A stretch of 33,857 bases of DNA from Arenicellaceae bacterium (GTDB lineage: Bacteria; Pseudomonadota; Gammaproteobacteria; Arenicellales; Arenicellaceae): positions 1-33,857 of the forward strand of contig JAQWNC010000001.1 in the NCBI GenBank assembly GCA_029246505.1, written 5' to 3'. Below are positions 1,420 to 11,455 of this stretch, in pieces. How positions within the stretch are numbered: position 1 is the stretch's first letter; each line of letters begins with the position of its first letter. A program made the translations under genes and the position numbers. The notes below the pieces were generated by a model. The model was not told the origin of the DNA, did not search any database, and saw only the letters and a list, made by a program, of their open reading frames with translations.

Positions 1420-3018
1420 CTAGACCTCGCGGGTTGCGCGAAACTCAACGTCTGGCCACCGCTCTTGAGCTAGTTGCAGGTTGACCATATTGGGTGCGAT
1501 GTAGGTCAGGTTCTCGGCTCCGTCTAAAGCGAGATTTTGCTCGTTCTTACGGAAAAATTTTTGCTCCATTTTCGCATCTGGGAAAGCTAACCAACGGGCA
1601 GTGGCTACCTGTACAGTCTCGAATGAGCATTCAACGTTGTATTCGTTCTGCAATCGATGTGCAACAACATCAAACTGTAATATGCCGACTGCGCCAAGTA
1701 CCATGTCATTTGAAATCAGCGGGCGAAAAACCTGAGTCGCACCCTCTTCGCTTAGTTGGATTAAACCCTTTTGTAGGGCTTTTGCTTTCAGTGGGTCGCG
1801 TAAACGTACGCGCCGGAATAGCTCTGGTGCAAAATTGGGTATGCCAGTGAATTTAAGTTTTTCACCTTCGGTAAACGTGTCACCGATTTGAATGGTACCG
1901 TGATTGTGTAAACCAAGAATATCACCCGCCCAGGCATCTTCAGTTTGTTCACGGCGCGCTGCCATAAAACTGGTGGCGTTGCTAATGGTTACATCTTTGC
2001 CGATGCGAACGTGGCGCATTTTTTTACCCTTGGTGAAGTGCCCAGAGGTTATGCGCATAAAAGCAATTCGGTCGTGATGTGATGGGTCCATATTTGCTTG
2101 AATCTTAAATACGAAACCTGTGAGCTTTTTTTCACCAGCTTCTACAACGCGAGTCTCGGTTTCCCGGCCTACGGGTGGGGGAGCGTATTTAATAAAACTA
2201 TCCATTAACTCCTGTACACCAAGGTTGCTCAAGGCGCAGCCAAAGAACACCGGGGTCAGGGTTCCGTTCAAGTAATCTTCTACTACAAAGTCGTGGCTTG
2301 CGCCGACGACTAGTTCGAGTTCGTCACGCAGTTCGGCTGCGAGAGTTCCGAGCTCCTGGTCCAATATTTCGTTATCAAGCCCGTTAATTATGAAGTCTTC
2401 GGTTCGTCCATCTCGACCAGAAAATAGATGCACGGTATCATCATGTAACCGGTATACGCCGACAAACGCTTTGCCCATACCAATGGGCCACGTTAGTGGC
2501 GAGCAGCGAATGTTAAGAACCGATTCAACTTCGTCCATTACTTCTATTGGGTCTCGACCTTCGCGGTCCATCTTGTTTACAAAAGTCATAATCGGCGTGT
2601 CGCGTAAGCGGCAAACGTCCATCAGTTTGATGGTGCGCTCTTCTACACCCTTAGCGATGTCTATTACCATAAGCGCTGAATCTACCGCTGTTAGGGTTCG
2701 ATAGGTATCTTCAGAAAAGTCTGCGTGGCCGGGTGTGTCGAGCAGGTTAACGATATGGTCGCCGTAGTCGAACTGCATGACTGATGAGGTAATAGATATA
2801 CCTCGCTGTTTTTCCATCTCCATCCAATCGGATGTTGCATGACGACCTGATTTACGCGCCTTAACATTGCCCGCCATTTGAATCGCACCGCCAGATAATA
2901 GAATGCGTTCGGTAATCGTGGTTTTACCCGCATCTGGATGAGAAATAATTGCAAAAGTTCTTCTGCGCACAACCTCTTCGGGCAGCTCTTGTAGTTTAGT
3001 TTGCGGCAGGTCGGTCAT
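1420..3018 (-). CDS. prfC: Peptide chain release factor 3 (RF3)
   Basis: RF3 is the GTPase that removes RF1 and RF2 from the ribosome after peptide release. The 532-residue product (E. coli 529) has the P-loop SHPDAGKT, the switch region [17 protein letters not shown], and NKMD for guanine recognition. The C-terminal half includes [14 protein letters not shown] and [15 protein letters not shown], which separate RF3 from EF-G. An in-frame ATG at 3063 would add 15 residues. A TATAAT box at 3057-3052 lies between the two starts, so a transcript from it would lack the upstream ATG; I therefore use the ATG at 3018. The gene is convergent with nusG. prfC is not normally found in this cluster. Confidence 0.95.
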
Positions 3019-3081: not shown

Positions 3082-3196
3082 CTCTGTTGTTTACTCTATT
3101 TGACGAGTCGTTGTGTACCCGTAGTAAAAAATTGAATTGGTAAAATCCCCGAGTTTATGAAGACAGTGAAATGCCCATTATCATCTGAGCAAACTT

Positions 3197-3727
3197 TTAC
3201 GCACCGACAAATTCCAATAACTTGGAAAAATCATGTTTGTCAGTAGCTCGTAGTGCCGCAATGTACTGATCACGGCGCTCATTCATATTTTTCAATTTAT
3301 AGCCCCCTGCCCAACCAATCGCAGGTTCTCCCATAAGCTTGGTGAGCATAGCATCCGCAATAATACGTACATGGCGACCATTTCTATTTGGGAATGGGTG
3401 TATTAGGAGTAATTTGTGATGAAAGCGCGCTGCGAGCTCCATTGGTAGATAGGTCTGATGTTCTATCCAGTAGCAAGCATCATCTAATAGATGTCGCAAT
3501 TCAATTACAATCTGGAGCGAATCAATGCCTATGTTATTTTCCGTTTTTAGACAAGACTCAGCCCATTTCCATACTTGCCCAAATAACCTTTTATGCAGAT
3601 CGCGTACTAATCTCTCGGTGAGTATATCGGGGCTTTTCTGCTTTTTAAGCCAGGCCATCCCGTCAGCGATGTTGGCTTGTTCTAGCTGACCTCTTGTAGC
3701 GACATGATTAAAGAGAAGCTCTTTCAT
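3197..3727 (-). CDS. Fic-domain protein, mobile mystery protein B type, altered motif
   Basis: Fic proteins transfer AMP or related groups to protein hydroxyls. The 176-residue product resembles the family called mobile mystery protein B: NIGID near residue 66, YWIEHQTY (86-93), RFHHKLLLIHPFP (101-113) and YIAALRA near the end. The catalytic motif reads HPFPNRNGRHVR (110-121), against HxFx(D/E)GNGRxxR in typical Fic proteins. The histidine and both arginines are present. Asn stands at the metal-binding acid position, as I recall for this subfamily, but the first glycine of the anion-binding GNG is Arg (codon AGA, one transition from GGA). WAES (55-58) replaces the usual WAG. The N-terminus looks shorter than in full-length relatives. 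Activity is doubtful. The gene follows the phospho-sugar transferase by 10 bp on the same strand and is probably cotranscribed. No partner protein A gene is visible. Confidence 0.85.
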   Translation of the reverse strand: MKELLFNHVATRGQLEQANIADGMAWLKKQKSPDILTERLVRDLHKRLFGQVWKWAESCLKTENNIGIDSLQIVIELRHLLDDACYWIEHQTYLPMELAARFHHKLLLIHPFPNRNGRHVRIIADAMLTKLMGEPAIGWAGGYKLKNMNERRDQYIAALRATDKHDFSKLLEFVGA

Positions 3728-3737
3728 TGTGTTTTCT

Positions 3738-4718
3738 TTAGAATAGCTCTCGATGCTTAGCTAGATGCGTTACAAGTAGCGCCATACCTAAGTAAACTAA
3801 CACAAAACTTATCGCGCTCAGTAATTGTTGGGACTGTTGTAGAAACAACATTTTAACTGCGGCAATGCCTTGTAGCACCCCTAGCAATATAGTCAGTATG
3901 ACAAGTTTCGTGTGGGACCAGCCAGATCTGTTCAGCAGTTGATAAATGTGAGAACGGTGTGCCTGAGTTATGTTTTCGCCAGCGAGAAGTCGTCGAATCA
4001 TGGTAAACGAAGTATCGATCACAAAATGCAGTAACAGCATAGGAACAACCCACCACGGTATTTCTGGTGCGAAAGTCACTGTTGCGGCAGCAAACAAAAA
4101 CCCAAGCGAAGCGCTGCCAACATCACCCATAAAAATTTTTGCGGGTGACCAGTTAAATATGAGAAACCCAATCGAAGTGGCGGCAATTAGAGCGCCCAAC
4201 CAGAATGCTGGCTCGATACTTAAGTTATAGGCAATATGCGATAAAAATATTCCAGCAACAATTGCCGTGCTGCCAGCAAAGCCGTCTAGCCCATCCATGA
4301 AGTTAAAAGCGTTGCTCATGCCAATAATCCATACAATAGCGATTAGACTGATTAACACCTTGCTTGTGTTAGCATCATTGAGCAGTCCAGCCGAATATAC
4401 GATAAGCAGTGTTGCTGTAAATTGAGTGGCAATTCTGAGTCGTTTGCTACTGGAGCGAATATCATCCAAAAGCGACACCGCGCCAATTAGAATAAGCCCA
4501 GCGACTAGTGGCCAATTACCAGGCATTAAATACACTATGCCAGCCAACAGGCTCAGTACCAGCCCGATACCACCTGCACTTGGCGTGCTGCCAACATGCG
4601 AAGAACGCTCGTTAGCAGCATCCAAGGTTAAACGTCGTTTCAACACCCAATAGGTTAGTAGCGCAGATAGCGCTGCGTGAAAAATGAGAATCGGATATGG
4701 ATTTAGCGGTAGTTGCAT
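3738..4718 (-). CDS. WecA/WbpL-type polyprenyl-phosphate sugar-1-phosphate transferase
   Basis: A MraY/WecA superfamily integral membrane enzyme that starts a lipid-linked glycan by moving a sugar-1-phosphate from a UDP-sugar to undecaprenyl phosphate. The 326 residues contain many hydrophobic segments and the family motifs in order: NERSSHVGSTPSAGGIG (36-52), the DD pair in LLDDIRSS (83-90), NAFNFMDGLDG (136-146), FMGDVGS (196-202) and the HRSHIYQ loop (254-260). It is too short and divergent for MraY and lacks the peptidoglycan context. The HRSHIYQ loop and length resemble the WbpL group (FucNAc or QuiNAc transfer), which fits the WbpM-like gene next door on the other strand. Exact substrate is inferred only. 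Confidence 0.88.
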   Translation of the reverse strand: MQLPLNPYPILIFHAALSALLTYWVLKRRLTLDAANERSSHVGSTPSAGGIGLVLSLLAGIVYLMPGNWPLVAGLILIGAVSLLDDIRSSSKRLRIATQFTATLLIVYSAGLLNDANTSKVLISLIAIVWIIGMSNAFNFMDGLDGFAGSTAIVAGIFLSHIAYNLSIEPAFWLGALIAATSIGFLIFNWSPAKIFMGDVGSASLGFLFAAATVTFAPEIPWWVVPMLLLHFVIDTSFTMIRRLLAGENITQAHRSHIYQLLNRSGWSHTKLVILTILLGVLQGIAAVKMLFLQQSQQLLSAISFVLVYLGMALLVTHLAKHRELF

Positions 4719-7002: not shown

Positions 7003-8124
7003 GTGGCAGGTAAGACAGCACTAATTACCGGCATCACCGGACAAGACGGATCTTATCTAGCAGAGCTTTTGTTGGAGAAGGGCTACGTAGTACATGGCAT
7101 TAAGCGGCGTGCTTCGTCGTTAAATACCGAGCGTGTGGACCATATTTATCAAGACCCGCATGTGTCTGCTCGAGACTTTGTTCTGCACTACGGTGACCTT
7201 AGTGATGCTTCTAACCTGACTCGAATTTTAAGTGAGGTAAGGCCAGATGAAGTATATAACCTGGGTGCTCAATCGCATGTGGCGGTGTCTTTCGAGGCGC
7301 CAGAATACACAGCCGATGTAGATGCACTTGGAACATTGCGGATGTTGGAAGCTATTCGTTTTTTAAAGATGGAAGATAAAACTCGCTTTTATCAAGCCTC
7401 TACTTCTGAACTCTATGGTCTAGTGCAAGAAACCCCACAAACTGAGATAACTCCATTTCATCCGCGTTCGCCCTACGGCGTCGCCAAACTGTATGCCTAC
7501 TGGATAACAGTTAATTATCGCGAAGCCTATGGCATGTATGCCTGTAATGGCATTTTATTTAACCATGAATCTGAGCGCCGTGGTGAGACTTTCGTAACCC
7601 GTAAGATTACTCGTGGACTGGCTAATATCGCTTTAGGTCTAGAAAATTATTTGTATATGGGCAACCTCGATGCGCTCCGCGATTGGGGGCATGCGAAAGA
7701 TTATGTGCGTATGCAATGGTTAATGCTGCAGCAAGAGACCGCCGAAGACTTTGTTATTGCAACCGGTAAGCAATATTCCGTGCGGGCCTTTATAGAGATG
7801 GCGGCGGCTGAATTGGGTGTTACCTTGGCCTGGCATGGCGAAGGCGCAGATGAAGTAGGGACTGTTGATTCTGTTAGCGGTGAAGCTACTGGTCACCTAA
7901 AACAAGGTCAGGCTATTATTCGGATTGATCCACGGTATTTACGCCCTGCCGAAGTTGAGACGCTGCTAGGCGACCCTACAAAAGCTAAAGCAAAGCTTGG
8001 TTGGAAAACAGAAATTACCGTTGAACAAATGATTCAAGAAATGGTTGCCCATGATCTTGATCAAGCCAAGCGGCATGCCGTACTTAAACGAGAAGGTTTT
8101 AACGTGAACGTAAGTCGCGAGTAA
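7003..8124 (+). CDS. gmd: GDP-mannose 4,6-dehydratase
   Basis: Gmd makes GDP-4-keto-6-deoxy-mannose from GDP-mannose, the first step to GDP-L-fucose. The 373 residues match the usual length. The NADP site [14 protein letters not shown] starts at residue 8, the catalytic Thr134 and Glu136 lie in STSELYG, and Tyr158-x3-Lys162 is in [23 protein letters not shown] (about 187-202) and [10 protein letters not shown] are also typical. The start is GTG with a weak AGGT upstream. The fcl gene begins 3 bp after the stop, so the two are coupled. A second, decayed gmd of another subtype lies at 10730-11455 in opposite orientation. Confidence 0.96.
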
Positions 8125-10729: not shown

Positions 10730-11455
10730 TCATTCATTTTCATCTTTAACCATCATAGAGACTATACCGTGCATTTTGTACTAGTCTTTCCAGTCCAACT
10801 TAGTAAGTGCTTTTGATGGGTTGGCCATACTTTCGGCGATATCAGTTGGCCTGAGTAACGCAGGGTCTGTGAGCATATGTTTTTTCCAATCCACATTTAA
10901 TTCCTCGAACGCAGCAATTATAAAATCTTACAGTGAGTAACTAGCCTGGGTCACAATTACAAAATTATTTGGTTCTTCTTGCTGCAGCATTAACCACATG
11001 GCCTCTATATATTCAGGAGCCTAATCCCAATCTCTTACAATCGAGATGTTTCCGAGGTGGAGCTATTCATTCTCTCTCGCGGCGATTCTGGACGCAGCCG
11101 AGATAATTTTCTTGGTTACAAATCGTTCGGGCCGTAATGGTGAGCCGTGATTGAACAAAATTCCCGAACACGTAAAAATATCGTAGGCTTCGCGGTAGTT
11201 TGAGCTTTCCCAAAACGCTACGGATTTCGCTATCGCATGCGGGCTCCTCGGTCTAAATGGAGTTTCTTCATCAGCGGGTATGCCGCTAGTATTGCCAAAA
11301 CATTCGTCGGAGCCCACGTTATAGAGTTGTATGGGTTTATTGGTAAATCGAACCGCTTCAAGTAAATTAAGTGCGCGGACACTAACGCGAGGTATGTGCT
11401 CTACTGTGCATGGAGTTTCAGCCCACTGCACATTAAAAGAAGTTCTTTACTCTAC
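10730..11455 (-). pseudogene. Decayed, 5'-truncated GDP-mannose 4,6-dehydratase
   Basis: A minus-strand frame reads as the C-terminal two thirds of a Gmd. From about 11431 it gives LNLLEAVRF, GSDECFGNT, TPFRPRSP, NYREAYDIF, GILFNHGSPLRPERFVTKKI, then LHLGNISIVRD, APEYIEAMWLMLQQ and LLRPTDIAES down to KMHGIVSMMV. The frame is kept throughout but is cut by four internal stops at 11065-11063, 11023-11021, 10930-10928 and 10783-10781, before a final TGA at 10732-10730. The catalytic Tyr of SPYxxAK is His here (SPHAIAK). The first ~110 residues with the NADP site are missing; homology fades near 11440-11455. It belongs to the SSECFG-type Gmd group, unlike the intact gmd at 7003, so it is not a recent copy. 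The 185 bp between manC and the relic show no gene. Confidence 0.88.

What the first reader, a model, noticed from the sequence alone, without database searches (positions are those of the whole stretch)
3380..3430. Fic protein with Arg in the anion-binding loop
The motif reads HPFPNRNGR at residues 110-118. The first Gly of the GNG loop, whose backbone holds nucleotide phosphates in Fic enzymes, is Arg through a single G-to-A change, and Asn occupies the metal-binding acid position. WAES replaces WAG further upstream, and the N-terminus looks short. The protein may be inactive, may use another substrate, or may be an early pseudogene that is still open.
Basis: partly seen in the sequence, partly recalled or inferred. 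Interest (0 to 1): 0.52.

Follow-up and report, generated by a model that had tools for sequence, protein, structure and literature searches.

The report
Decaying orphan Fic toxin-like gene
A small bacterial enzyme gene has lost its usual partner gene, its start and several otherwise fixed residues, one of them in the loop that should hold the nucleotide, so it is most likely a slowly decaying leftover rather than a new enzyme.

Summary
A 176-aa Fic protein (3197-3727, minus strand) reads HPFPNRNGR, with Arg115 (AGA, 3383-3385) at the first Gly of the loop. It is a mobile mystery protein B (TIGR02613, 211 bits against a cut-off of 124). Asn in the acid position is the family norm (111 of 112 aligned rows, one gap), so it is no sign of decay. 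The Arg is abnormal: 2 of 112 rows have it, the window and one distant copy that gained it separately. WAG is intact in the 111 other rows and WAE here. The window differs at 11 of 52 columns conserved in at least 90% of the others (median 1), lost its N-terminus and three residues, and lacks the partner gene A, found beside B in 114 of 116 loci. Its terminal branch has omega 0.23 against 0.07, yet clearly below 1. A predicted model is less confident than a relative's, most of all at the N-terminus, residues 51-70 and the loop. In a same-genus genome the site holds no Fic gene. Best reading: an orphaned, probably inactive remnant of an A-B pair, on its way to a pseudogene. New function is not excluded. 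Low interest.

The parts
3197..3727 (-). Fic gene, mobile mystery protein B (TIGR02613), 176 aa, orphaned and 5'-truncated
3374..3400 (-). active-site loop HPFPNRNGR (residues 110-118)
3383..3385 (-). AGA codon, Arg115 at the first Gly of the GNG loop
3548..3565 (-). WAESCL (residues 55-60) in place of WAG[TS]FR of near relatives; Gly57 and Arg60 are fixed in the 111 other aligned rows
3688..3689 (-). site of a nine-base, three-residue deletion (ELD of near relatives) between codons 13 and 14
3242..3244 (-). Thr162 where the 111 other aligned rows have Ala
3728..3740 (-). junction: the Fic ATG follows the stop codon (3738-3740) of the upstream gene by 10 bases; gene A and the first codons of gene B are absent
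3085..3737 (-). approximate extent of the segment without a counterpart at the same place in the same-genus genome G001
3738..4718 (-). upstream co-oriented glycosyltransferase family 4 gene (PF00953); the same-genus orthologue aligns to residue 325 of 326
1420..3018 (-). downstream co-oriented gene, peptide chain release factor 3 (prfC) by its sequence (name recalled)

Best explanation
It is a leftover of a horizontally acquired mobile mystery A-B pair. The A gene and the first codons of B were lost, and what remains of B sits directly behind a glycosyltransferase gene, 10 bases after its stop codon. Without the partner the gene lost most of its selective value and has gathered substitutions at residues that the sampled family members do not change, among them Arg in the anion-binding loop, Glu in WAG, Leu at the Arg of the FR pair, and Thr in RAAD. 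The protein may still be made and partly folded, but Arg115 and the disturbed region before the flap should prevent normal nucleotide binding, so it is probably catalytically dead or nearly so. Shown: family, lesions, absence of the partner, relaxed branch, absence at the site in a same-genus genome. Inferred: horizontal acquisition, that A-B acts as a toxin-antitoxin-like pair, that the protein is inactive, that partner loss came first.
For: TIGR02613 match 211 bits. At the first Gly: Gly in 109 of 112 rows, Arg in 2, gap in 1 (109 of the 112 rows are distinct). 11 of 52 columns conserved at 90% or more are lost here, mean 1.7 and median 1 over 112, second only to L047. 14 private changes (three of them deleted residues) at columns invariant in 14 near relatives, against 0-6 for each of those relatives. 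Gene A directly upstream in 114 of 116 loci with at least 600 nt of flank, window included; the exceptions are the window and L113; no A match at E<=0.001 in the window's genome. Terminal-branch omega 0.228 against 0.069, 2dlnL 15.6 against one ratio, the largest 2dlnL of 15 terminal branches; 0.207 against 0.083, 2dlnL 9.5, with eight taxa. Private changes at codon positions 1, 2, 3 occur at rates 0.109, 0.083, 0.189 (p 0.057 for position 3), against strong third-position enrichment in L039 and L035. AlphaFold2: mean pLDDT 80.6, loop block 68, against 91.6 and 94 for the matching part of relative L057 with the same 42 sequences; Foldseek PDB matches at E<=0.001: 1 against 90. Of four other copies with a loop lesion, L185 (TGA inside) and L187 (TAA inside) are broken elsewhere too, and L047 has lost the loop.
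Against: The frame is open over 176 codons. Branch omega is significantly below 1 (2dlnL 15.5, 27.5), so much of the branch was constrained. His110, Asn114, Asn116, Gly117, Arg118 and Arg121 are kept. Near relatives L032 and L058, which keep the loop and gene A, have higher omega on short branches (0.24 and 0.30; 2dlnL 7.2 and 9.2), and L057 and L032, with few changes, show no significant third-position enrichment either. L004, the other Arg bearer, has its A gene and a branch that is not relaxed (omega 0.064 against 0.051). Broken copies L048 and L049 keep an intact loop, so loop lesions are not a general mark of decay. L113 lacks gene A but keeps an intact loop. A Campylobacter Fic protein with a degenerate loop is still toxic (PMC5651007, passages).
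Confidence: 0.73

Rival explanations
1. Changed function: the protein keeps a Fic fold but uses Arg115 and the altered flap base to bind another substrate or a protein partner, independent of gene A.
For: Open frame and branch omega below 1. Degenerate Fic loops are thought to mark new functions (PMC3667792, passages), and one is toxic (PMC5651007, passages). The same Gly-to-Arg change arose separately in L004, the only other family-B copy found among 21 genomes of the window's taxonomic family.
Against: Changes are spread over the whole protein, including N-terminal loss, an internal deletion and changes such as F40L, F59C, A162T, not a clustered remodelling. Among the 52 conserved columns L004 shares only the Arg with the window and has a second loop lesion of its own. 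The model loses confidence at the changed sites.
Confidence: 0.13
2. Loss of function by selection rather than drift: a Fic toxin without its partner is harmful, so the loop was inactivated first and the rest decayed later.
For: Loop lesions recur: 5 of the 130 copies (window, L004, L047, L185, L187). Partner loss and a loop lesion coincide in the window.
Against: The order of events cannot be read from one copy. L113 has no gene A beside it (sequence that looks like an IS transposase by eye stands there) and keeps an intact loop, and L004 and L047 have loop lesions with gene A present. That B is toxic was not tested.
Confidence: 0.1
3. Sequencing or assembly error at the Arg codon.
For: No reads are available, and one base would suffice.
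Against: Six other losses at conserved columns besides the N-terminal ones would need independent errors; the frame is intact.
Confidence: 0.02

Closest known systems
Mobile mystery protein B (TIGR02613), Fic family
   Same: Match over positions 12-185 of 186, Asn before the loop Gly, loop His and both loop Arg residues present.
   Different: Arg for the first Gly, WAE for WAG, Leu for the FR Arg, shortened N-terminus, no gene A.
Canonical Fic AMP transferases with HxFx(D/E)GNGRxxR (such as VbhT, SoFic; consensus from PMC3667792)
   Same: Pfam Fic domain (40 bits); FICD chains are the best fold matches.
   Different: Asn in the acid position, as in the rest of the subfamily sampled; Arg at the first Gly of the nest.
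Campylobacter fetus Fic2 (degenerate Fic toxin, PMC5651007, passages)
   Same: Degenerate loop in a Fic protein.
   Different: Fic2 sits beside Fic1, its antitoxin, and its loop differs at other positions; here the partner gene is absent.

Membership tests
Mobile mystery protein B (TIGR02613) | score above the curated cut-off of 124.4 bits (the definition of the family) | tested here: met
   211.1 bits
Mobile mystery protein B (TIGR02613) | gene A (TIGR02612) next to it (usual companion, not part of the definition) | tested here: not met
   no A gene upstream, no match at E<=0.001 in the genome; 114 of 116 loci have it
Mobile mystery protein B (TIGR02613) | loop NGNGR (usual feature, not part of the definition) | tested here: not met
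   NRNGR
Canonical Fic AMP transferase | HxFx(D/E)GNGRxxR loop | tested here: not met
   Asn and Arg at two of the positions; consensus from PMC3667792 (passages)
Canonical Fic AMP transferase | AMP transfer activity | not testable with these tools
   needs protein
Type II toxin-antitoxin toxin | toxicity relieved by the partner | not testable with these tools
   needs an experiment; one search lists 4 papers that hold the family's name, once each (listing seen only, papers not opened)
Pseudogene | frame broken, or substitution rate ratio of 1 | tested here: not met
   frame open; branch omega 0.21-0.23, below 1, although raised against the background
AGA codon reassigned to Gly | AGA at Gly sites of core genes | tested here: not met
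   AGA at Arg sites of rpoC, S12 and others; conservation of these sites recalled

The most novel reading that the evidence does not exclude
In this taxonomic family the only two family-B Fic proteins found (21 genomes searched), though from distant branches, both carry Arg at the first Gly of the loop, through AGA. The host lineage may select for a B protein that binds but cannot transfer a nucleotide, for example as a decoy or an inhibitor of intact copies.
Probability: 0.08. Interest if true: 0.5.

Novelty: new member of a known kind. Interest (0 to 1): 0.17.

Why it matters
Little by itself: it shows how a mobile Fic module may decay after losing its partner gene, and that loop lesions recur in this family. 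If the Arg form turned out to be kept by selection, it would be a natural nucleotide-loop variant of Fic worth a structure.

Tried and rejected
Codon reassignment of AGA to Gly was considered because both Arg bearers use AGA and belong to one taxonomic family; rejected. Descent of the Arg from one ancestor was rejected: the two copies lie in separate clades, each with Gly-bearing nearest relatives. A remnant of gene A in the window was sought with a profile built here; best E 1.9. Similarity of the 3' intergenic stretch to other loci: none in the best 40 rows printed. Viral contigs gave no match with the single protein and 11 loci with the alignment. Phage records gave one weak match. PADLOC gave only SoFic and PDC-S04 models for the window protein, at most 55 bits. 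The promoter scan found 3 promoter-like sites, shuffles 4.4 on average. EcFicT G55R (PMC5033356, passages) was looked at as a parallel; its position 55 lies at the start of the Pfam core (54-157), so it is not the loop, and I judged it not to be WAG without aligning it.

Sampling limits: the census is not random. Rows dropped before the column counts: 6 of 118 (L103, L111, L119, L147 partial; L048, L049 broken); all six read NGNGR. The 112 rows hold 109 distinct sequences. Plasmid copies (248 records) were not read for the loop. The omega tests use my own two-ratio codon model, on one FastTree topology per taxon set. The family-A profile was grown from one copy and the same loci that it then scored. 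The model comparison has one control.

Full report
What is there. The minus strand carries an open frame of 176 codons, 3197-3727. It scores 211 bits against mobile mystery protein B (TIGR02613; cut-off 124.4) and 40 bits against the Pfam Fic domain. The loop reads HPFPNRNGRHVR at residues 110-121, and Arg115 is AGA at 3383-3385.

Is Asn abnormal? No. In an alignment of 112 homologues (6 of 118 partial or broken rows dropped; 109 of the 112 distinct) Asn stands before the loop Gly in 111 and one row has a gap. The sampled subfamily departs from the HxFx(D/E)GNGRxxR consensus given in PMC3667792 (passages). Nothing about decay follows from it.

Is Arg abnormal? Yes. The first Gly is Gly in 109 of 112 rows, Arg in 2, gap in 1. 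In 18 further copies, none identical to the 112, it is Gly in 17 and Asp in one, L187, which has a stop inside. Among 27 loci with other or weaker Fic matches, 25 gave a loop by an expression that left this position free, 27 hits in all, every one with Gly; two loci gave none. GNG forms the anion hole in FICD (PMC4342408, passages), and backbone amides at the start of the following helix bind the phosphates (PMC3667792).

The second Arg bearer, L004, reads HCFPNRNGCHAR, also through AGA, has a second lesion (Arg to Cys) and keeps its A gene. The window and L004 are 49% identical and fall in different clades, each beside relatives with Gly, so the change most likely arose twice. Both genomes belong to one taxonomic family; among its 21 genomes no other family-B match was found (in one search a third genome had only a weak Fic match, 30% identity). 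I have no explanation for that coincidence beyond chance and a common kind of mutation. AGA is Arg in the window's genes.

How damaged is the rest? The window departs from the others at 11 of 52 columns conserved at 90% or more; five of these are missing residues (four N-terminal, one in the internal deletion) and six are substitutions. The mean over 112 is 1.7, the median 1; only L047, which lost the loop, has more (13), and L004 is third with 6. Against 14 near relatives it has 14 private changes at invariant columns, three of them deleted residues; each of those relatives has 0 to 6. Gly57, Arg60 and Ala162 never vary in the 111 others.

Selection. It has the largest 2dlnL of 15 terminal branches, but L058 (0.296; 9.2) and L032 (0.243; 7.2) are raised too, with higher point values. 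With eight taxa the values are 0.207 and 0.083, with 2dlnL 9.5 against one ratio and 27.5 against omega 1. So constraint is relaxed, not absent, over the branch as a whole. A mixture in which the last sixth or so of the branch was neutral would give the same mean (inference). A neutral stretch of that length leaves the frame free of stops in about 17% of simulations (neutral distance 0.083). L004's branch is not relaxed (0.064 against 0.051).

Partner and place. With a profile grown from L004's A gene, 114 of 116 loci with at least 600 nt upstream have A within 300 nt of B; the two without are the window and L113, where other sequence, by eye an IS-like transposase on the opposite strand, abuts B. 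TIGR02612 finds no A gene in the window's genome (97.5% complete). In the same-genus genome G001 the neighbours keep their order, but the short interval between the glycosyltransferase and prfC genes holds no Fic gene, and G001 has no family-B match (it is 88% complete). In the window the Fic ATG lies 10 bases after the glycosyltransferase stop, so read-through transcription is possible (inference).

Structure. AlphaFold2 with one set of 42 sequences gives mean pLDDT 80.6 and pTM 0.79 for the window protein and 91.6 and 0.88 for the matching part of relative L057. The loop block (residues 111-120) has 68 against 94, residues 51-60 have 70 against 92, residues 1-10 have 40 against 82. In the window model one helix runs through 38-61, where the relative's ends at 49. 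Foldseek finds 1 PDB match at E 0.001 or better for the window model and 90 for the relative. One control only, and such models are weak evidence on single substitutions.

Recurrence. Among the 130 copies read here, loop lesions are also seen in L004, L047 (loop deleted in frame, A gene present), L185 (loop Arg to His, TGA inside) and L187 (Gly to Asp and Arg to Cys, TAA inside). Two of these four have a stop as well, which leans towards decay for the window too; but the broken copies L048 and L049 keep an intact loop.

Conclusion. The gene is best read as an orphaned and probably inactive remnant of an A-B module, still open and perhaps expressed. A changed function is possible but has no positive evidence beyond the low omega and the repeated Arg. 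That the pair is toxin-antitoxin-like is an inference from Fic biology: PMC2701414 (passages) argues that small genes paired with known toxins such as Fic/Doc are probable antitoxins; the words 'mobile mystery' do not occur in its held text.

Noticed in passing
L047 1501-1854: A mobile mystery protein B that lost the whole catalytic loop by an in-frame deletion while its frame and its A gene remain.
   Followed up: partly
L004 1486-2106 (minus): Independent Gly-to-Arg plus Arg-to-Cys in the loop of a B gene with an A gene over the family cut-off and an unrelaxed branch.
   Followed up: partly
L002 1306-2376 (minus): The genome's other Fic match (38 bits) reads HIAPFSDANGQMAR, itself an unusual loop.
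   Followed up: no
window 11063-11431: A 122-aa open frame on the minus strand that looks like a fragment of a GDP-mannose 4,6-dehydratase (by eye), in the same window as a full-length gene of that kind (by eye) at 7003-8124.
   Followed up: no
L113 2300-2950: Upstream of a B gene with an intact loop, sequence that looks like an opposite-strand transposase stands where gene A should be (by eye).
   Followed up: no
L185, L187: B genes with in-frame stops that also carry loop lesions.
   Followed up: no
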